Virus record (IMG/VR): IMGVR_UViG_3300031673_000014
Coordinates: 17,146-81,145 of that record
Length of the DNA: 64,000 nt
Reading direction: 5' to 3' (one strand)
Source of the DNA: a virus
Shown here: one piece after another, positions 23,239 through 32,493 of the stretch
Position numbering within the stretch: position 1 is the stretch's first letter
Layout of the letters: each line of letters starts with the position of its first letter
The notes under the pieces: generated by a model
Told to the model about the DNA's origin: nothing
The model's input: only the letters and a program-made list of their open reading frames with translations
The model's database searches: none
Position numbers and translations under genes: made by a program

Positions 23239-23634
23239 TTATTTAAGTCTCCTGGTATCAAAGTTAATATATATTTTATCATACTGATCAAAGTACCCAT
23301 AACTCCTATCAATGTTATGGGTACAGAGATGCTGATACCCTATTTCCAATATCCATAGATTGATTCCTGCTGTTACATAATACTTTTCTTTATATGGTGA
23401 AAAATAAAATGATCTTGATTTTGTAATATCTACTTCTTGATTTACATCAACGAACAGAAACTTCCATGCTATGCCTATCCCTATATTTGTTGAAAAATAC
23501 ATGTTCTCATCATTTGTAAATCTATCCTCTTTCATAGGATAATAAGCAAACTCCCCAAATGAATAGAAACTAAAATCACTTGCATATAAATAACTGCTCA
23601 ATAATAACATCAATAAAACTATAATCTTTTTCAT
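23239..23634 (-). CDS. Secreted beta-rich outer-membrane-like protein
   Basis: 131 residues. A clear signal peptide 'MKKIIVLLMLLLSSYLYAS' is followed by alternating aromatic/hydrophobic strands ('FSFYSFGEFAYYP', 'NMYFSTNIGIGIAWKFLF', 'YYVTAGINLWILEIGYQHL'), as in small outer-membrane beta-barrels. It is transcribed against the structural operon from its own operator-bearing promoter. This looks like a lysogenic-conversion gene and implies a host with an outer membrane. The start follows AGGGGGAATTT. Confidence 0.65.
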   Translation of the reverse strand: MKKIIVLLMLLLSSYLYASDFSFYSFGEFAYYPMKEDRFTNDENMYFSTNIGIGIAWKFLFVDVNQEVDITKSRSFYFSPYKEKYYVTAGINLWILEIGYQHLCTHNIDRSYGYFDQYDKIYINFDTRRLK

Positions 23635-23652
23635 AAATTCCCCCTACTTTTA

Positions 23653-23680
23653 ATTATACATACGATTAGAATAAAAGCAA
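23653..23680 (-). promoter_or_regulatory. Minus-strand promoter with spacer operator CTAATCGTATGTA
   Basis: On the minus strand TTGCTT (675-680) and TATAAT (653-658) are separated by 16 nt; the operator element occupies 23657-23669. It drives the secreted protein gene. Confidence 0.75.
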
Positions 23681-23691
23681 GGGAAATCGCT

Positions 23692-24117
23692 TTATTCCCC
23701 GATCATTCCTAATTTATCAAAAACAGATAGATCAGAAAGAGATAGAACAGCTTTTTCGTCTTTCATCTCTTTCATCAAAGCTTTGAACGTTTCTTTTTTC
23801 AGGACCGGGAAATCCAGTTTTACAGGAACCGGAGAATTCAGGAACAATTCAGTTTCAGTAAGGTTTGATTCTTGCTCGTCTGCAGAGTTATAACCACCGG
23901 GATTGAATTGTGTTATTCTTTTTTCTGCCATTTTTCCATACTTCAAAGCAATAGAATTTGATCCTTTTGTGAACAATTCATCAACTTTGACGAAATCCTG
24001 CTTTAATTTAGCAACCATGATAGATTCTTCCCAGTCCGGAAACCCTGGAAGTTCAAAAAGTTTTGTCATAGCAACTCTACTCTCTCTGAAATCTTTAAAA
24101 GTAAACTCTTCTTTCAT
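23692..24117 (-). CDS. Hypothetical protein (141 aa)
   Basis: Acidic, helical protein starting 'MKEEFTFKDFRESRVAM' after AGAGAGGATAAT. No family recognised. It lies downstream of the helicase on the same strand and probably shares its transcript. Confidence 0.6.
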   Translation of the reverse strand: MKEEFTFKDFRESRVAMTKLFELPGFPDWEESIMVAKLKQDFVKVDELFTKGSNSIALKYGKMAEKRITQFNPGGYNSADEQESNLTETELFLNSPVPVKLDFPVLKKETFKALMKEMKDEKAVLSLSDLSVFDKLGMIGE

Positions 24118-24169
24118 ATTATCCTCTCTTGAATTTATTTAAGGTGAATTAAATTCCCCCTGATTCCTA

Positions 24170-25666
24170 TTATACTTTCTTGGCTGTAAGAGTCAAGATG
24201 ATGTTTCTTGCAGTCTCCATTTCACTCATATTCATTTCTTTTAATTGACACTTCCGGCCAATAGCGACATATATCTTCATCCATAAGATATTCCTTCTCC
24301 GGAAACTTTCGGTATGGATTATTCTCTTTTTACCGTCCAGTTCCTTTACTGATTGCTCACCTACGTACCGATTGATCATTGCGTTAATTTCTTCACGGAA
24401 AGATTTTTCTTTCATTGACGGGGTAATATGAGCGTTTCCAGAGATTATCTCAAGTTCTGGTTTATGCTGTCCCGGGAGACCTTTTCCTCCGTCTTTTTTT
24501 TCTTTATATTCAAGAGCCCTGTCTTGTTCCCATATCCAATTCTTGAAAAAAGATATGAAGTCCGGATCTGCCGGTGCTGTGATATAAGCGAAGTCTTTGT
24601 ATGTTTTGAATCTTGTCGCTCGATTCAGGCATTGGATTAACCATGGCTCAGAGCGGTATATGTGCAGAATGATCATAAATGCTGTATTCGGGGCATCTAA
24701 TCCTTCTGAAGCTTGATTACAGCTACTTAAGACAGGGAATTCACCTTTTCTATAACTTTTTATTATACCAAGAGAATCTTTCATTTGAGAGTCAACGGAT
24801 TTACATTTACACCACTTATGATTTACATGTCTGGAATACTCTCTGGCTAGTTCAATGTCAGCTCCAACAATAATCATTTGAGCCCAAGGATTATTTCTTC
24901 TATATTCCATAAATTCAGACATTGCATTGTCTATTACTTGAAAAGCATAATCACTTCGAACGGCTGCATTAAGATGTTCTCTGTCCATAGAGTCATATTC
25001 AATAATCTTTTCACCTTTTTTATATTCCCCGGATCCGTCTATAAGATTTAATTTTACAGGAATAATGGCATCTTCTCTGAGGGCATCTTCCCGGGTATAT
25101 GTTACCCATCGTATATTTTTAGTTTCTGTTTTATCCAGCATATTATTTTTATATGGGAAAAATGAGATCTTATCCCCGGTGTGACGAAAGGCGGTCCCGG
25201 TCATAAAAACACAAAGTTTTGCTAATTTTACCAACTCAAGAAAAGGCTTCTCCCAGCTCCCATCACTGGAAACGTGATGATGTTCATCAGCAATAAGAAT
25301 ATAATTATATTTTTTGAAATCTTCTATTATATTGTCGGCATTACTGGCAATGGCTTGAAAAGTTATCCCGAATCCGTCTAATCCCCTTGATGGATCTTTT
25401 CCGTTATCCGCAACCCTTATTGTTTTCCCGGAATCAAAGAAAGGATCAATCATACTTTCTTCAATTTGGTATACTAACGATAACCGGGGCGCGACATGCA
25501 TAATTTTATCAAAGCCATTACCAATTAGATGTTTTGCAAATAGAATAGAATCTCCGCTTTTACCGGATCCCGGATGAGCATCTATAAATATTTTATTTAT
25601 TGGTTCACCTTCAATAATTTCGTTACATATAGAAATTACTTCAGATTGATGTTTTCTCCAAGCCAT
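24170..25666 (-). CDS. SF2 DEAD/DEAH-type helicase
   Basis: 498 residues. Walker A 'AHPGSGKS' (30-37), motif Ia 'VAPRLSLVYQ', motif II DEHH (127-130), motif III 'MTGTAF', and motifs V/VI 'SEGLDAPNT' and 'QCLNRATRF'. This is a complete SF2 helicase core of the UvsW/restriction-helicase type. It could act in recombination or replication fork processing. Ribosome site AAGGATAATAAATA. Confidence 0.85.
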   Translation of the reverse strand: MAWRKHQSEVISICNEIIEGEPINKIFIDAHPGSGKSGDSILFAKHLIGNGFDKIMHVAPRLSLVYQIEESMIDPFFDSGKTIRVADNGKDPSRGLDGFGITFQAIASNADNIIEDFKKYNYILIADEHHHVSSDGSWEKPFLELVKLAKLCVFMTGTAFRHTGDKISFFPYKNNMLDKTETKNIRWVTYTREDALREDAIIPVKLNLIDGSGEYKKGEKIIEYDSMDREHLNAAVRSDYAFQVIDNAMSEFMEYRRNNPWAQMIIVGADIELAREYSRHVNHKWCKCKSVDSQMKDSLGIIKSYRKGEFPVLSSCNQASEGLDAPNTAFMIILHIYRSEPWLIQCLNRATRFKTYKDFAYITAPADPDFISFFKNWIWEQDRALEYKEKKDGGKGLPGQHKPELEIISGNAHITPSMKEKSFREEINAMINRYVGEQSVKELDGKKRIIHTESFRRRNILWMKIYVAIGRKCQLKEMNMSEMETARNIILTLTAKKV

Positions 25667-25750
25667 TATTTATTATCCTTTCTGCAAAATAATACGCGAT
25701 GATCATAATCTTGCACCGTTAAATAAGATAGGTCGAAATCCTGTCCGATC

Positions 25751-26374
25751 TTATTTATTCTCTTTAATATATTTCTTCCTGAAATTATCTATGTTCTGCA
25801 TTGTCATAACTGCTTGAGGGTAGTTTCTACTCTCGGAGACGTTTGTTCTAAGAGTCAATAATCCAAGATTTAAAGATTTTTGAGAGGGTATATTTTTCCC
25901 GGTCAACAACCCATTATCTCTCATAATGTCAAATATTTCTGTTTGGCTTAACCCTAAATGTTTGCCAGCATCACGAATAGAATAATGTTTTGATTCATCT
26001 CTCAGGGCAGCATCAGCAAGTGCAGCTTTTGGTTTTAGAATTGCATTTTCTTCCTCTAGTTTCTTATACCTCTGAATAGCGAGCTCATAACCTTTTACGA
26101 TCATCAAAGCTTCTTCTGCCTGTGTTGTTGGCAACTTCCTACGATCATCGGAAGTGATTAAAGAACTATTTTCCTTAATTCTCATTGAAACTGCCGTTAC
26201 TTCATATTCGTTCAAATAAGTAATCTTACCATTCTTAACTTTATCAGGAAAAATCTCATTAACCCTTTTTATTACAAGGGCATAACTTACTCCTAATGAA
26301 TCTGCAACTTCTTTTATGGTCATTGTTTTTTCTGGAAAATCTTCTTGTGGAAATAATGCAAGATCTCTGTTCAT
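25751..26374 (-). CDS. KilAC-domain antirepressor with N-terminal helix-turn-helix
   Basis: 207 residues from the ATG after AAGGAGTTTTTT. N-terminal 'MTIKEVADSLGVSYALVIKRV' is a helix-turn-helix; a coiled region ('YKKLEEENAILKPKAALADAAL') leads to a KilAC domain ('YSIRDAGKHLGLSQTEIFDIMRDNGLL'). The ribosome site is buried in a perfect 18-bp hairpin and a 20-codon leader frame precedes it. A longer form from GTG at 26407 is possible through coupling to the leader. Confidence 0.75.
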   Translation of the reverse strand: MNRDLALFPQEDFPEKTMTIKEVADSLGVSYALVIKRVNEIFPDKVKNGKITYLNEYEVTAVSMRIKENSSLITSDDRRKLPTTQAEEALMIVKGYELAIQRYKKLEEENAILKPKAALADAALRDESKHYSIRDAGKHLGLSQTEIFDIMRDNGLLTGKNIPSQKSLNLGLLTLRTNVSESRNYPQAVMTMQNIDNFRKKYIKENK

Positions 26375-26379
26375 AAAAA

Positions 26380-26455
26380 ACTCCTTAAGTCTTCCTGTAG
26401 CGACCACTAAAAAGCTAGTTCGGAAAACTTTATAGGGCAGGAAGACTTAAGGAGT
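26380..26455 (-). promoter_or_regulatory. RBS-sequestering leader hairpin of the antirepressor
   Basis: Positions 26380-26397 and 26438-26455 are perfect 18-bp inverted repeats around a 40-nt loop. In the minus-strand mRNA the downstream arm contains the AAGGAG of the antirepressor, so the site is fully paired. A smaller inner stem (CTAaAAAG/CTTTaTAG) extends the structure. Confidence 0.85.
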
Positions 26456-26469
26456 CTTTCAAATCCCAA
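26407..26469 (-). CDS. Possible 20-codon leader peptide
   Basis: A TTG start preceded by GGAGAG gives a 20-codon frame that runs through the first hairpin arm and stops at TAG inside the loop. The TAG shares its G with a GTG that is in frame with the antirepressor. Translation would open the hairpin and allow reinitiation. Confidence 0.4.
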   Translation of the reverse strand: MGFERLLKSSCPIKFSELAF

Positions 26470-26515
26470 ACTAATATAACTCTCCGCTAAAAGAGCAGAT
26501 CAACGATCTTCCATA

Positions 26516-26544
26516 ATAATACAGACATTAAAGAACATTGTCAA
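26516..26544 (-). promoter_or_regulatory. Minus-strand sigma-70 promoter for the antirepressor
   Basis: Read on the minus strand, TTGACA (544-539) and TATTAT (521-516) are separated by exactly 17 nt. It would start transcription near 26508, leaving a leader of about 130 nt. Confidence 0.75.
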
Positions 26545-26562
26545 ACAATATAAAATAAACTA

Positions 26563-26575
26563 GACATACGATTAT
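26563..26575 (-). promoter_or_regulatory. Operator-like element ATAATCGTATGTC
   Basis: This differs at two positions from the CTAATCGTATGTA element at 23657-23669. It lies between the divergent antirepressor and 26607 genes, upstream of the minus-strand promoter and within the weak plus-strand promoter region. Confidence 0.55.
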
Positions 26576-26606
26576 TATTGTGCTACTGTTTAGTTCAGGG
26601 GGATAT

Positions 26607-27638
26607 ATGAACTATACCGAATATCTAAAAAGAATTGATGTTTTAAAAAAACAGAACATCAAAGTAGGAAGTTTTGACTTTAATGGTCAAATGCCGATTG
26701 AATTCCTTAAGATTGAAATAATTGAGGAAGAAGTGACCGATTCTGCTTTTCATTGGCAGGACAAGTGGTCAAATAATGGGGGGAAATGGGTAAAAGAAAA
26801 ATCTATCGTTGACTGGGATAAAAACTACATTCTTATGCTTGGCGGTTTGTGTGGGATCGAGTCTGATCACTCTAAAAGCGAAAAAATGGGAAAATACTCA
26901 TATCTTTCAAAGTCTACCTGTTATCGTGTTCTTCCTTCGGGGAAAAAAGAGTATGAGTCTGCAGAATATGAATTTGATGCTGAGGTCAGGGCTGAAGAAG
27001 TAGTTTTGAAAAATGAGATTAAAGCCATGGAGTATGAGGAGAAAAAAGCTTCTAATTCTCTACGGCAGAATGACAGAGAAGTTTCCCGGAAATACAAAAG
27101 TGATTTTGAGAAACAATTAGTCGTTGTTGAAATGGCTAAATTCGGCAGACAGAGGGCTGACACTGGGGCTCACAAGAGAGCAATACAAAAGATGATAAAA
27201 TTACCGTCTGCAAACGAATCGTTGATTGGTACTCATTTATTCTGTTTTCAGTGTGTTCCTGATTTTTCTAATAAAAATGTTCGTCAAAAGTATCTTGAAA
27301 CTGACAGTCCCGGTTCTTCTGTTTTCGGACAAATAGAACATAGAGATTCTGATGTTATTGATCAGAAAGATACTGAACCATCGGCAATGTTCCAGATAGC
27401 AGAAAAAAAAGGATCGTTAAAATCAAATGCTGTTTTATACAAGTTGGCAGGATTTGTACTTGAGTCTGAGGCACACGCTGAAGGTTTTCTGGATCTTTTA
27501 AAGGGGTATAATGAGATTGAAGATAAAACTTCAAAGTTGATATTCTGGGTAGATCTATTTGAATCAATAGATCCTATTATTAAAAATGGCACTATCGGTG
27601 CTAAAAAAGATTACTTAAAAAACTGGGGGAATAAATGA
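26607..27638 (+). CDS. Hypothetical protein, possibly a recombination protein
   Basis: 343 residues from the ATG after CAGGGGGATAT. 'VVEMAKFGRQRADTGAHKRAIQKMI' near residues 170-200 resembles the 'aeT.A..RAir' pattern of single-strand annealing proteins (Rad52/Erf/Sak groups), but this is weak. It is the first gene of the operon that contains the SbcD-SbcC fusion, which would fit a recombination role. Confidence 0.5.
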   Translation: MNYTEYLKRIDVLKKQNIKVGSFDFNGQMPIEFLKIEIIEEEVTDSAFHWQDKWSNNGGKWVKEKSIVDWDKNYILMLGGLCGIESDHSKSEKMGKYSYLSKSTCYRVLPSGKKEYESAEYEFDAEVRAEEVVLKNEIKAMEYEEKKASNSLRQNDREVSRKYKSDFEKQLVVVEMAKFGRQRADTGAHKRAIQKMIKLPSANESLIGTHLFCFQCVPDFSNKNVRQKYLETDSPGSSVFGQIEHRDSDVIDQKDTEPSAMFQIAEKKGSLKSNAVLYKLAGFVLESEAHAEGFLDLLKGYNEIEDKTSKLIFWVDLFESIDPIIKNGTIGAKKDYLKNWGNK

Positions 27639-27769
27639 AAAGTTTACTTAACAACGTTATCATACTGACAAGTATAATGGCCGGATTTATACTGACCTTT
27701 GTATGGTTTGGATGGAAAATGGCTATAGTATTATTATTATTAACACAATTCGCAGGGGGAATAGAATGA
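27635..27769 (+). CDS. Small membrane protein (44 aa)
   Basis: ATG after GGGGGAATAA. 'LLNNVIILTSIMAGFILTFV' and 'MAIVLLLLTQFAG' form one or two membrane segments. A holin-like role is possible but unsupported. Confidence 0.55.
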   Translation: MKSLLNNVIILTSIMAGFILTFVWFGWKMAIVLLLLTQFAGGIE

Positions 27770-28020
27770 AAATATCTATAGAAATGGAAATACCGGACAA
27801 TGTTTTAAAAGGAATGTTCGGTGTTGCGGATGTGAACATAAAAATGGTTGAAGACATGGTAAGAATATCTTTTTATCAAGAGGTTGCCTCTAAACATGGC
27901 GATATTGATAGTGTATTGGATTGGATTGCATCGGATGATGTTTCAGAAGTTGAAAGAAGATTCCGTAAAAACCTTATTGAAATGACAAGAAAGTTCAATC
28001 AAAAGAGGAAATCTAAATGA
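27766..28020 (+). CDS. Hypothetical protein (84 aa)
   Basis: Start ATG at 27766 overlaps the previous stop and follows AGGGGGAATAGA. The protein begins 'MKISIEMEIPDNVLKGMF' and is helical and basic at the end. Overlaps the next gene by 4 bp. Confidence 0.6.
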   Translation: MKISIEMEIPDNVLKGMFGVADVNIKMVEDMVRISFYQEVASKHGDIDSVLDWIASDDVSEVERRFRKNLIEMTRKFNQKRKSK

Positions 28021-31000
28021 AAACAGCGCATATAGCAGACTTACACCATAGTCCAGAGAGACATAAAAAAGTAATGAGAATCTTGGATCAGGTTATTGAG
28101 ATCCTTCCAGATGTTGATTTATTGACAAATTCCGGTGAGAATTTCAATAATCCTTACAATATTGGAGAGGTTTACAATCAGCTGCTTGATAAGTGGGGAG
28201 AGGCTACAGCGATTAAACCGGTGGCTACAATAGATGCTACTCAAGGAAAGCACGAACGGGAAGGAATGCTAAGAGGTCTCAAAAGTGCTGGTATAGTTAT
28301 TATAAAGCCCGGAATGGCTTATGGGTATGGAGCAGGACAGATCTATCCTAAAATTGATGGGCTTGAGCCAGAAATGCTATTATTCGGCGTTCCTCATGCT
28401 CATAAGGGAAAAATCGTGATGGGTGAAATGTCCAGAGATGAAGCCAATGCTAAAGTAAATCAGGAAATGGCAAAACTGTATTCTTTTTATGGTGCATTGA
28501 GAGCGAATAATCCCGATATACCAGCCCTTGCCGTTGGTCATGGAGTCGTACAGGGTAAGAATACCAGAGATTTACATGCTATTAAGAACAGTTCTATTTA
28601 TTCAACTGAAGCTGAATTAAAACAAATGGGCTGTGATTTTTACGCATGGGGACATTATCATGTCCCTACAGAGTTTGAATTAATCAAGGGCGGTTATCTC
28701 GGTTCGTTTGCCTGGGATTGGAACGAATTGAACTATAAACCGGCAATTACTATCATGGACTGGGATACAATGGAAGTTACCAGACATGAGCTTGATATCA
28801 ATACAAGAAAAAAACTTGTTATGTTTCCAGGGGATAAAATACCAGACCTGACCGGTTGTGATGTTCATTTGATCAATAATGAAACTGAATGGACTGAATC
28901 TGACTGCAGAGATGCCGGAGCCGGACAGATAAAAATAACAACAGAGGTTGAACTTGAAAACAAGATAAGATCTCAGGCAGTAGTCGAAGCCGTTTCTTAT
29001 CCGGAAAAATTCAAAGCGGTTTATCCCGATGCAACCGATAGGCAATTACAGGTTTGTGATGAAATGTGGGAAGCTGACAAAGCAGAGGGTAAGATACCCG
29101 AAGAAAAGGTCATAACTCCTCTATACCTGACTGTCCATGGATCAAAGAACTTCCTAGAAAGAATAGGCAGGGAAACAATAAAGATTGATTTTAGAGACCA
29201 TGACGGCCTTGTAATGCTTATCGGTGACGGTGGACTCGGAAAGACAACGTTGTTTGATTATGCTAATCCGTTTCCGCTGCTTTTCGCTCAGGGGAATTCA
29301 TTACTTTCTACTTTCGAGATGGAAGATTCTTTTATTGAGCAGGGATGGGATATAAACGGGGAAGTTTTTATTATAAAGAAATTTTTCAAACCTACTTTAA
29401 AAAGTCCTAAAGCCGAATATTATGCTTTTAAAGAAAATGGCGAAAAGATATCCGGTCTGGATTCTGGGAATGTTGGACCGTATAGTGATTGGTGTCTGTC
29501 TATGTTTGGATCTCCCCGAAGATATTCTTCTTCTGTTTTCAATACTCAGTTTGACGACAATCCTGCGACATTCTCAGGGCAAAAGATAAATCCTTCCATA
29601 TTTCAGGCAAATAATATTGAGTTAAAATCATTATTTCATGAGCTGGCAGGAACAGATTTGAAACATCTTGAGCTGCAATGTAAAGCAAAAGCCGACGAAT
29701 TCAAAGATATGGCTGAGAATGAGCTTATGAAAAAGTCCGGTGTAGAAGAAAGTATTCCCGATACTGCGGTATTTATGGAAAGGATGTCAGAAATAAATCA
29801 CGAAATTGCTGATAAGAGTATTGTGTTAGGGGCAATAGACAGTGAAATATTATCCTGCAAAGTAAAAATCAAAGATATAGAGAAGATTGAAGAGGGAAAT
29901 AGAGACATTGATACAACAGTCTTTATTCTTAACGGACAGATTGGTACGGAAACTGCGAACAGGAATACCCTTAACCATGAGCTGTCAGGGCTTAATAATG
30001 TCGACATTGATACTGTTACCAAGGTTTTAGAAAAGATGGATTCTGACAAGGTTATATACGATTCTCGCTTAAAAGAACTTCCAGAGATCAAAAGACATAA
30101 TGTTGATATTCAACAAACATTTATGAAAGCTCTTGAAAATTGGAATACTGATAACCTGGGAATTGTAGAGCATAACAACAGTGTTTCATCTATTAAAAAA
30201 GAGATTGAAACTGCCATGTTGAATAAAACAAGGGCAATTACAAGAAAAAAAGATAAACAGGTCAGAGCTGAACAGGATCAAAAAAACCAGAACATAAACA
30301 TTGAAAATGAATATGGAAGACTTAAGGTAGGGATTGAACAATCCATATCCACTTTGAATGAACAGATCAAAACCGGAAAGGAAATGGTTGAAAATATCGT
30401 TGCCTGTCCTAAGTGTGGATATCAGGATGAAGATTCTCTCAAAAAGAAGTCTGACTATGAAGCAAGAATAAAGCTGAGAGAGACCGAACTTGATGGTAAA
30501 GTGAAAGAACTTCTTGAATTGGTAGAGCCGGAAAAAGTAACCGTAAAGGCTGATTGTTCGGAAGAAGATAAAGAAATTGTCGAATATGATGAGATAATCA
30601 ATCAGGTAGTACCAGAGATAAAGCCAGTCCCCGATAAACCGATTGAACCGGTTTACTTGAATGAAGATCTCCCGGTGTTTGATTTTGACAAATATTCTTC
30701 TTTGAAAGACCAGATTTCTTCTTATTCTGAATCAAAAATAACAGAACTGCAGACAAGAATTTCAGAGTGTACAAAGAGAATAGCTGATTTACAGAATCAA
30801 AAAGAGTCTAAAATAAAGACCGAAATTGATTATTCTCCTGTTGATCAATTGAAGGCTGCCGAAGAAAAACTGAAAACTATTGAAAAAGAGATCCAACAAT
30901 TAAACAATGAGATTTCTTTAAAAGAGTCTAAGATATCTGATATCAATAAGATGAGAGAATCACTTGTTGAATACGACAACCGGATAGAGAAGTATAATGA

Positions 31001-31505
31001 GGAATTTACTTTCTGGGCTGATATGAAAGAGAAATGGGGTCCTAAAGGGATACCGGCCAGAATACTTGAGCATACAGGACCTTATGTTGATCAGGAGGCG
31101 AACAGGATACTCGCGAAATATTACCCATTGTATAAAGTTCACTCAGAGACTACAAAAATGTCCAGTGATGGTAAAAAAGAGCTGGAAGTGTTTAATATCT
31201 CAGTAGTGAATCAAGAGACTACCAGAACAAAGCCGTTGAACTGTATAAGTGGAGAAGAGAGAAACTTCATTAATGAGGCTCTACGGTATGCTTTCAGGAA
31301 AGTAAACGAACAGAATTCACTTGTCCGGTATAATGTTATGTTTGAGGACGAGCCCGACTCACATGTTTCTAGTGCTCAATTACATACGTTTTGGGATTTA
31401 TTAACCGATATATCAGAAGATCGATTATCTTTTTGTATATCTCATTCTCCGGAAGTGAAACATAGATCAGCGACAACAATAGATATAATAGATTTGGAGG
31501 GGTAA
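28017..31505 (+). CDS. SbcD-SbcC (Mre11-Rad50-like) fusion nuclease-ATPase
   Basis: 1162 residues in one frame. The N-terminal 250 residues are an SbcD-like metallophosphoesterase: 'ADLHH' (7-11), 'GKHE' (77-80), 'GHG' (174-176) and 'GHYH' (212-215). From about 370 an SbcC-like SMC-type ATPase begins: Walker A 'GDGGLGKTT' (403-411), long coiled coils, zinc hook CPKC (797-800), signature 'SGEE' (from 1078), Walker B 'VMFEDEPD' (1107-1114) and H-loop 'ISHS'. Normally these are two proteins. Motif II 'GE' (40-41) and 'GKHE' deviate from 'GD' and 'GNH', so nuclease activity needs testing. Confidence 0.85.
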   Translation: MKTAHIADLHHSPERHKKVMRILDQVIEILPDVDLLTNSGENFNNPYNIGEVYNQLLDKWGEATAIKPVATIDATQGKHEREGMLRGLKSAGIVIIKPGMAYGYGAGQIYPKIDGLEPEMLLFGVPHAHKGKIVMGEMSRDEANAKVNQEMAKLYSFYGALRANNPDIPALAVGHGVVQGKNTRDLHAIKNSSIYSTEAELKQMGCDFYAWGHYHVPTEFELIKGGYLGSFAWDWNELNYKPAITIMDWDTMEVTRHELDINTRKKLVMFPGDKIPDLTGCDVHLINNETEWTESDCRDAGAGQIKITTEVELENKIRSQAVVEAVSYPEKFKAVYPDATDRQLQVCDEMWEADKAEGKIPEEKVITPLYLTVHGSKNFLERIGRETIKIDFRDHDGLVMLIGDGGLGKTTLFDYANPFPLLFAQGNSLLSTFEMEDSFIEQGWDINGEVFIIKKFFKPTLKSPKAEYYAFKENGEKISGLDSGNVGPYSDWCLSMFGSPRRYSSSVFNTQFDDNPATFSGQKINPSIFQANNIELKSLFHELAGTDLKHLELQCKAKADEFKDMAENELMKKSGVEESIPDTAVFMERMSEINHEIADKSIVLGAIDSEILSCKVKIKDIEKIEEGNRDIDTTVFILNGQIGTETANRNTLNHELSGLNNVDIDTVTKVLEKMDSDKVIYDSRLKELPEIKRHNVDIQQTFMKALENWNTDNLGIVEHNNSVSSIKKEIETAMLNKTRAITRKKDKQVRAEQDQKNQNINIENEYGRLKVGIEQSISTLNEQIKTGKEMVENIVACPKCGYQDEDSLKKKSDYEARIKLRETELDGKVKELLELVEPEKVTVKADCSEEDKEIVEYDEIINQVVPEIKPVPDKPIEPVYLNEDLPVFDFDKYSSLKDQISSYSESKITELQTRISECTKRIADLQNQKESKIKTEIDYSPVDQLKAAEEKLKTIEKEIQQLNNEISLKESKISDINKMRESLVEYDNRIEKYNEEFTFWADMKEKWGPKGIPARILEHTGPYVDQEANRILAKYYPLYKVHSETTKMSSDGKKELEVFNISVVNQETTRTKPLNCISGEERNFINEALRYAFRKVNEQNSLVRYNVMFEDEPDSHVSSAQLHTFWDLLTDISEDRLSFCISHSPEVKHRSATTIDIIDLEG

Positions 31506-31507
31506 TT

Positions 31508-31843
31508 GTGGGAAGACCAGCAAAAAAATATGGAGGAGATGCTCGAAAAGAGTATCTCGATGTAGCAAAAAAACTTTTCATAAAGAAAGGTTTTGCAAAT
31601 ACTTACATAAGAGAAATAGGCCGGTTGTCAGGGTATAATGAGAGTAATCTTTACACTTATTGGAAAACAAAAGAGGATCTTTTTAATGAAATTACAGCTT
31701 GTGTTTCTGATATGGATTTGGATTCTGCTTGCCAATTTCCTATAGAGTATGCAATTATGGTAGAGAAGATGCTTTCTGAAGAAGGAACTTTGATTACTAA
31801 GTTATCAGAATTAAGCCCGGAACTTTTAGTTTCAATGCTATAA
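31508..31843 (+). CDS. TetR-type DNA-binding domain protein, short
   Basis: 111 residues from GTG after GGAGGGGTAATT. Residues about 10-58 are a TetR N-terminal domain: 'YLDVAKKLFIKKGFANTYIREIGRLSGYNESNLYTYWKTKEDLF'-type spacing. The usual 120-150-residue ligand domain is missing, leaving about 50 residues. It may be a truncated or minimal regulator. Confidence 0.7.
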   Translation: MGRPAKKYGGDARKEYLDVAKKLFIKKGFANTYIREIGRLSGYNESNLYTYWKTKEDLFNEITACVSDMDLDSACQFPIEYAIMVEKMLSEEGTLITKLSELSPELLVSML

Positions 31844-31884
31844 ATATGAGGGGGAGAAATCCCCCGGTATCAAGAGAGGAAACT

Positions 31885-32493
31885 TTGAAAAACGTAATTA
31901 TTTATTTATCTGTTATTTTTTGTTTTATAATATTAGGGATTTTGATCGGTCGTTATATAATCCCTAGGGATCCTGTAGTGATTGAAAAAGTGGTCGAAAA
32001 AATTGTTTATTTGGAAAAGCCGAAAATAGAAAAAGTGTTCAATTATATAAATCCTATCCATGAAGAAGACTATATTAAATTAAGCAGTCCATACGGTCTA
32101 AGAGAAATTCCGAAAGGGATCTATACCGGGGGAGCATTAGACCGGGATCATGAGGCACTTGATTTATATGGTACTTGGCAAGCCCGGATTGTGGCCGTCG
32201 CTGATGGTGTTGTTAAAGAAAAATGGTATGTTCCTAATGAATATAAAGGCTATAAAGGACATCCGATTTATGGCGGATATATTGTAATACTTCATTCAGA
32301 CGGAAGCGAGACAGGTTACGGACATCTTAGCTGGATAAGCTCAGAGGTCCATGAGGGAGACTTTGTTTCTCAGGGTCAAGTAATTGCCCGGCAGGGTGAC
32401 ACGGGACTGTCAGACGGCGGACATCTTGATTTTTCCGTTAAGATAAATGGAGAATATGTAAATCCGTTAAAATATGTTGACATAGAAGAATAG
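31885..32493 (+). CDS. Membrane-anchored M23-family (LytM) peptidase
   Basis: About 202 residues from TTG at 31885 (after AGAGAGGAAAC); an upstream ATG at 31846 lacks a ribosome site and lies next to a GGGGG/CCCCC hairpin. 'NVIIYLSVIFCFIILGILIG' is a signal anchor. The catalytic domain has 'DRDHEALDLYG' (HxxxD), 'GYGHLSW' and 'GGHLDFSV'. In active M23 enzymes the last motif is HxH; here it is HLD. It is the only cell-wall hydrolase I see and so the best lysis candidate. Confidence 0.75.
   Translation: MKNVIIYLSVIFCFIILGILIGRYIIPRDPVVIEKVVEKIVYLEKPKIEKVFNYINPIHEEDYIKLSSPYGLREIPKGIYTGGALDRDHEALDLYGTWQARIVAVADGVVKEKWYVPNEYKGYKGHPIYGGYIVILHSDGSETGYGHLSWISSEVHEGDFVSQGQVIARQGDTGLSDGGHLDFSVKINGEYVNPLKYVDIEE

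What the first reader, a model, noticed from the sequence alone, without database searches (positions are those of the whole stretch)
28017..31505. SbcD and SbcC fused in one 1162-residue polypeptide
Nuclease and ATPase halves of the Mre11-Rad50 system normally are separate subunits (gp47 and gp46 in T4). Here both are in one continuous frame with a zinc hook CPKC. Two nuclease motifs are altered (GD to GE, GNH to GKH), which might change metal binding or leave a structural nuclease.
Basis: partly seen in the sequence, partly recalled or inferred. Interest (0 to 1): 0.72.

Follow-up and report, generated by a model that had tools for sequence, protein, structure and literature searches.

The report
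Phage-encoded fused SbcD–SbcC DNA-end protein
This phage carries the two halves of a DNA-break processing machine (SbcD nuclease and SbcC ATPase) as one long protein; such fusions are already known and common in other phages, and the odd part here is that two metal-binding positions of the nuclease half are changed.

Summary
Confirmed: window 28017-31505 is one uninterrupted 1162-codon ORF with an SbcD/Mre11 phosphoesterase domain (about residues 1-364) joined to an SbcC/Rad50 ATPase (about 365-1162) with a CPKC zinc hook. No stop, frameshift or internal start codon lies at the joint. Both motif changes are real in the sequence: GD to GE (E41) and GNH to GKH (K78). The other active-site and ATPase motifs checked are present.

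The fusion is not new. Mre11-Rad50 fusions were described in 2011 in Mimivirus, a Bacillus phage, plasmids and eukaryotes (PMC3175470). My survey adds Sphingomonas phage PAU, Tenacibaculum and Chryseobacterium phages, Microcystis phage Mel-JY01, a 735-kb phage, and 29 of 30 IMG/VR loci found with two of these as queries. All of those aligned keep GD and GNH. The window protein is closest to the split sbcD/sbcC genes of Leptospira phage LE1 (86/95 support), suggesting a separate fusion event; one shared origin is not rejected (AU p = 0.10). A sister phage lacks the gene and has a YqaJ-type exonuclease in the same slot.

Most likely a single-chain SbcDC that tethers and processes phage DNA ends, with weakened or altered nuclease chemistry. 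New variant of a known kind; modest interest.

The parts
28017..31505 (+). Fused SbcD-SbcC (Mre11-Rad50-like) gene, 1162 aa
28017..29108 (+). SbcD-like calcineurin-type phosphoesterase domain plus helical C-terminal region, residues 1-364
   Evidence: Pfam Metallophos; hhalign E 1.8e-9; Foldseek to E. coli SbcD
28038..28046 (+). Phosphoesterase motif I, D8-x-H10, intact
   Evidence: alignment
28134..28139 (+). Motif II, G40-E41 in place of GD
   Evidence: alignment; DNA GGT GAG
28245..28256 (+). Motif III, G77-K78-H79-E80 in place of GNH[D/E]
   Evidence: alignment; DNA GGA AAG CAC GAA
28539..28541 (+). Motif IV, H175, intact
   Evidence: alignment
28650..28661 (+). Motif V, G212-H-Y-H215, intact
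   Evidence: alignment
29088..29126 (+). Joint between SbcD and SbcC parts; no stop and no ATG/GTG/TTG at the expected SbcC start
29109..31505 (+). SbcC/Rad50-like SMC-type ATPase, residues 365-1162
   Evidence: phrog_77 E 5.5e-26; hhalign E 7.8e-21
29223..29249 (+). Walker A, GDGGLGKTT, residues 403-411
   Evidence: alignment
30405..30416 (+). Zinc hook CPKC, residues 797-800, between two long predicted helical arms
   Evidence: helices 688-794 and 807-836 (low confidence)
31248..31262 (+). ABC signature, SGEER, residues 1078-1082
   Evidence: alignment
31347..31352 (+). Walker B acidic pair, D1111-E1112
   Evidence: alignment
31443..31445 (+). H-loop histidine, H1143
   Evidence: alignment
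27703..28020 (+). Upstream 105-aa ORF of unknown function, overlapping the fusion gene by ATGA (same operon by position)
31508..31843 (+). Downstream TetR_N-type HTH protein starting 2 bp after the fusion's stop codon; conserved in sister phage G001

Best explanation
It is a single-chain SbcDC (Mre11-Rad50) protein of a contractile-tailed phage. By analogy with SbcCD, two copies should pair through the ATPase heads and the zinc hook, so each complex automatically holds two nuclease and two ATPase domains. ATP binding and hydrolysis by the SbcC part would clamp DNA ends or hairpins and present them to the SbcD part, serving recombination, end processing or end tethering during phage replication. 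Shown: the fused reading frame, the domain identities, intact ATPase motifs, the hook, and the GE and GKH changes. Inferred: the dimer, the DNA-end role, and that the nuclease is weakened or uses metal differently because one usual metal-binding Asn is a Lys and one metal-bridging Asp is a Glu. The fusion probably arose separately from the large known phage fusion clade, from adjacent overlapping sbcD-sbcC genes like those of Leptospira phage LE1.
For: Both halves found by profile methods. The halves match, in order, the two overlapping LE1 genes (P0002 387 aa + P0003 779 aa, total 1166 aa against 1162). Walker A, signature, Walker B, H-loop, hook and motifs I, IV and V are present. Tight operon: ATGA overlap upstream, 2-bp gap downstream. 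Tree: window groups with LE1-like split proteins (86/95) apart from the fusion clade (100/98). Known fusions elsewhere fit the geometry of the Mre11-Rad50 complex (PMC3175470). In sister phage G001 the slot between the tail genes and the TetR-type gene holds a YqaJ exonuclease and a partner gene instead, as expected of an exchangeable recombination module.
Against: No experiment and no close homologue, so no selection test on the changed residues. Both AlphaFold2 models are of low confidence (mean pLDDT 49.8 and 42.9). A single shared origin with the other fusions is not rejected (AU p = 0.10), and the window branch is long (1.79). The function of phage SbcCD outside T4-like phages is largely inferred.
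Confidence: 0.72

Rival explanations
1. The protein is a nuclease-dead, ATP-driven DNA-end tether or clamp: the SbcD part is kept only for structure and DNA binding because E41 and K78 spoil the two-metal site.
For: K78 replaces the Asn that is invariant in the other 20 aligned proteins, and E41 replaces the equally invariant Asp. ATPase motifs and hook are intact.
Against: D8, H10, H79, H175, H213 and H215 are all kept, and E is a conservative change for D. Active-site drift is also seen in other fusions (GHxH to GDxH; and Mimivirus R555 in PMC3175470).
Confidence: 0.35
2. The protein is a fully active nuclease; the GE and GKH changes are tolerated and the enzyme works like E. coli SbcCD.
For: Most ligand positions and the catalytic His are kept.
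Against: Asn at motif III is invariant in all 20 comparison proteins and in the 29 fused IMG/VR loci.
Confidence: 0.25
3. The fusion shares one origin with the large phage/Mimivirus-type fusion family and has merely diverged.
For: Same domain order and hook; AU test does not reject one clade (p = 0.10); signature SGEER resembles SGMER/SGKER of that clade.
Against: Best tree places it with split LE1-like genes (86/95). It keeps GHYH like LE1, whereas 29 of 29 fused IMG/VR loci have xDIH.
Confidence: 0.22
4. Assembly or sequencing error joined two separate genes.
For: Only one metagenomic record; no reads available.
Against: Uninterrupted 1162 codons, coding-like composition across the joint, stops in both other frames; total length and order match LE1's pair; fusions recur in many phages.
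Confidence: 0.03

Closest known systems
SbcD and SbcC of Leptospira phage LE1 and related IMG/VR loci (L048-L052)
   Same: Closest in sequence to both halves (pairwise E 1e-15 and 5e-6); same order; similar total length; GHYH motif V; tree partner (86/95).
   Different: Two separate genes, overlapping by 4 bp in LE1, L049 and L052; GD and GNHD intact; no CxxC hook in the LE1, L049 and L050 proteins aligned.
Phage SbcD-SbcC fusions: PAU gp288, PTm1, PTm5, pT24, MA9V-1, MA9V-2, Mel-JY01, 735-kb phage LR756501, 29 IMG/VR loci
   Same: One polypeptide, SbcD first; CxxC hook in all but one of the 29 IMG/VR loci.
   Different: About 20% identical to the window protein; those aligned keep GD and GNH[D/E]; nearly all have D for the first His of GHxH; separate clade (100/98).
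Mimivirus R555 and other Mre11/Rad50 fusions of Yoshida et al. 2011 (PMC3175470)
   Same: Same fusion order and proposed geometry; altered nuclease motifs are also reported there.
   Different: R555 alters other residues (an Asp to His, and His206 to Asp), is 1351 aa long and belongs to a virus of eukaryotes. Its sequence was not aligned here.
T4 gp47/gp46 and E. coli SbcD/SbcC
   Same: Same two domains and motifs.
   Different: Separate subunits, canonical GD and GNHD; separate branches in the tree.

Membership tests
SbcD/Mre11 nuclease | Calcineurin-like phosphoesterase fold with SbcD similarity | tested here: met
   Pfam Metallophos above cut-off; hhalign E 1.8e-9; Foldseek ranks 1-7 E. coli SbcD (low-confidence model)
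SbcD/Mre11 nuclease | All five motifs DxH, GD, GNH[D/E], H, GHxH | tested here: not met
   Three of five exact (DLH, H175, GHYH); GD is GE41, GNH is GK78H
SbcD/Mre11 nuclease | Mn2+-dependent nuclease activity | not testable with these tools
   Needs a bench assay
SbcC/Rad50 ATPase | Walker A, ABC signature, Walker B, H-loop | tested here: met
   GDGGLGKTT, SGEER, D1111-E1112, H1143
SbcC/Rad50 ATPase | Zinc hook CxxC between two coiled-coil arms | tested here: met
   CPKC 797-800 aligned with other hooks; flanking helices (low confidence)
SbcC/Rad50 ATPase | Family profile match | tested here: met
   phrog_77 E 5.5e-26; hhalign E 7.8e-21
Mre11/Rad50 fusion proteins (Yoshida 2011) | Both parts in one reading frame, nuclease part first | tested here: met
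Mre11/Rad50 fusion proteins (Yoshida 2011) | Common origin with the other fusions (not claimed by the 2011 paper, which argues for several fusion events) | tested here: inconclusive
   Best tree separates it; AU p = 0.10

The most novel reading that the evidence does not exclude
An independently fused SbcDC whose nuclease centre has been given up, leaving a self-contained ATP-driven DNA-end clamp or tether that works in phage recombination in place of a YqaJ-type exonuclease module.
Probability: 0.25. Interest if true: 0.5.

Novelty: new variant of a known kind. Interest (0 to 1): 0.32.

Why it matters
The fusion fixes the 1:1 ratio of nuclease and ATPase and gives a compact single-gene version of a machine normally studied as two proteins. 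If the altered site is inactive, it would separate the tethering role of SbcCD from its cutting role in a natural protein. The survey also shows that phage SbcD-SbcC fusions are common and often annotated only as 'metallo-phosphoesterase' or 'AAA domain containing protein'.

Tried and rejected
Close relatives of the whole protein or its pieces: none in the phage collection at E 1e-5, IMG/VR or genome contigs; plasmids were searched only with the 735-kb phage fusion, without a match. A profile scan with alignment A3 had no stretch conserved enough. The genome-contig scan with LE1 SbcC found nothing. Alignment A5 misplaced the window after motif III and neither it nor A4 was used for structure. 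The full-length AlphaFold2 model is too poor for a fold search, so none was run on it. A sequence search of the PDB with the single protein gave only chance hits. Considered and rejected: internal start giving a separate SbcC (no start codon near the SbcC start); frameshifted pseudogene; chance ORF (both halves have significant homology). OR846945 ('Listeria phage' clone) looked like a fusion in tblastn but has two ORFs; Eldridge and Grass likewise have two genes. Literature searches for Mre11 residue-number mutants gave nothing used here.

Full report
Observation. The ORF at 28017-31505 (+) is real, starts with ATG and has 1162 codons without a stop. The parent record G000 is an 81,145-bp IMG/VR virus record with this one copy. 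The gene sits in a tight run of genes: the 105-aa ORF upstream overlaps it by ATGA, a GAGG stretch lies 8 bases before the start codon, and a TetR_N-type gene begins 2 bp after its stop.

Identity of the halves. The first half matches Pfam Metallophos above its cut-off, aligns with an SbcD profile made from nine split proteins (96.3%, E 1.8e-9), and its low-confidence AlphaFold2 model (mean pLDDT 49.8) finds E. coli SbcD structures at ranks 1-7 of the PDB. The second half matches the PHROG SbcC family (E 5.5e-26) and an SbcC profile (99.3%, E 7.8e-21). Walker A, signature, Walker B, H-loop and the CPKC hook are present.

The joint. LE1's SbcD gene overlaps its SbcC gene by 4 bp, in a different frame. 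In the window the two parts are in one frame, with no ATG, GTG or TTG at the expected SbcC start. Stops crowd both other frames there and codon-position composition is steady. Without reads an assembly error stays formally possible but is unlikely.

Active site. D8, H10, H79, H175, H213 and H215 are kept. E41 stands for the Asp of motif II and K78 for the Asn of motif III. In the 20 other proteins aligned (10 fused, 10 split) both positions are invariantly D and N, and so they are in the 29 fused IMG/VR loci (24 distinct proteins, some of them among the 20). From general knowledge of the family (not tested here), these residues help bind the two metal ions, so weakened or altered catalysis is likely but not shown.

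Is the fusion rare? No. Yoshida et al. 2011 (PMC3175470) described fusions in Mimivirus, Bacillus phage 0305phi8-36, plasmids, bacteria and eukaryotes. With the fused protein of a 735-kb phage (LR756501, 1202 aa) I found matches over most of the query, each lying in a single annotated gene, in Tenacibaculum phages pT24, PTm1 and PTm5, Chryseobacterium phages MA9V-1 and MA9V-2, Sphingomonas phage PAU and Microcystis phage Mel-JY01 (gene tables read for PAU, PTm1, Mel-JY01 and MA9V-1). Two IMG/VR scans that used two fusions as queries gave 30 loci, 29 of them single-ORF fusions. These scans look for relatives of known fusions, so they show that fusions are common, not what fraction of all phage SbcCD is fused.

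Origin. A tree of 21 proteins and 482 columns puts the window protein with LE1-like split proteins (86/95) and the ten fusions in a separate clade (100/98). Forcing it into the fusion clade costs 9 log-likelihood units, AU p = 0.10. A separate fusion is therefore favoured, not proven; the window branch is long. Keeping GHYH, as LE1 does, rather than the xDIH of 29 of 29 fused IMG/VR loci points the same way.

Context. A sister phage, G001 (IMG/VR 3300027845_000349, 87.8 kb), shares most structural genes, mostly at 55-85% identity, but has no match to the window protein, the SbcC family or Metallophos. Between its tail genes and the conserved TetR-type gene it has, among others, a YqaJ exonuclease and a partner of PHROG family 7838. 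In the window the same slot holds an SF2-type helicase, a KilAC-domain protein, a 352-aa protein, the 105-aa protein and the fusion. This suggests, by position only, that the fusion belongs to an exchangeable recombination module.

Verdict. A genuine single-chain SbcDC, a new variant of a known kind. The fusion itself is already known; the altered nuclease motifs are the distinctive and untested part.

Noticed in passing
L025 2171-3088 (LR756508.1, 484-kb uncultured phage): The fused sbcD-sbcC gene appears interrupted in its SbcD part by a 305-aa Cys-rich ORF that looks like an intron-borne homing endonuclease.
   Followed up: partly
L009-L018, L053-L071: All 29 fused IMG/VR loci have D for the first His of the GHxH motif, the change reported for Mimivirus R555 in PMC3175470.
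   Followed up: partly
window 23239-31505 against G001 25879-32435 (L043): Apparent swap of a recombination module between sister phages: YqaJ exonuclease plus partner in G001, helicase/KilAC/fusion block in the window.
   Followed up: partly
window 26580-27638: 352-aa ORF upstream of the fusion with only a weak match to an unknown PHROG family (phrog_11083, E 0.0011).
   Followed up: no
L008 5992-8490: Fecal phage MT835601: the SbcC gene seems to carry an intein-like insert at its Walker A motif, and a RecA-like gene lies between sbcD and sbcC.
   Followed up: no
L050 and L051: In two LE1-like loci the sbcD and sbcC genes are separated by about 470 bp instead of overlapping.
   Followed up: no
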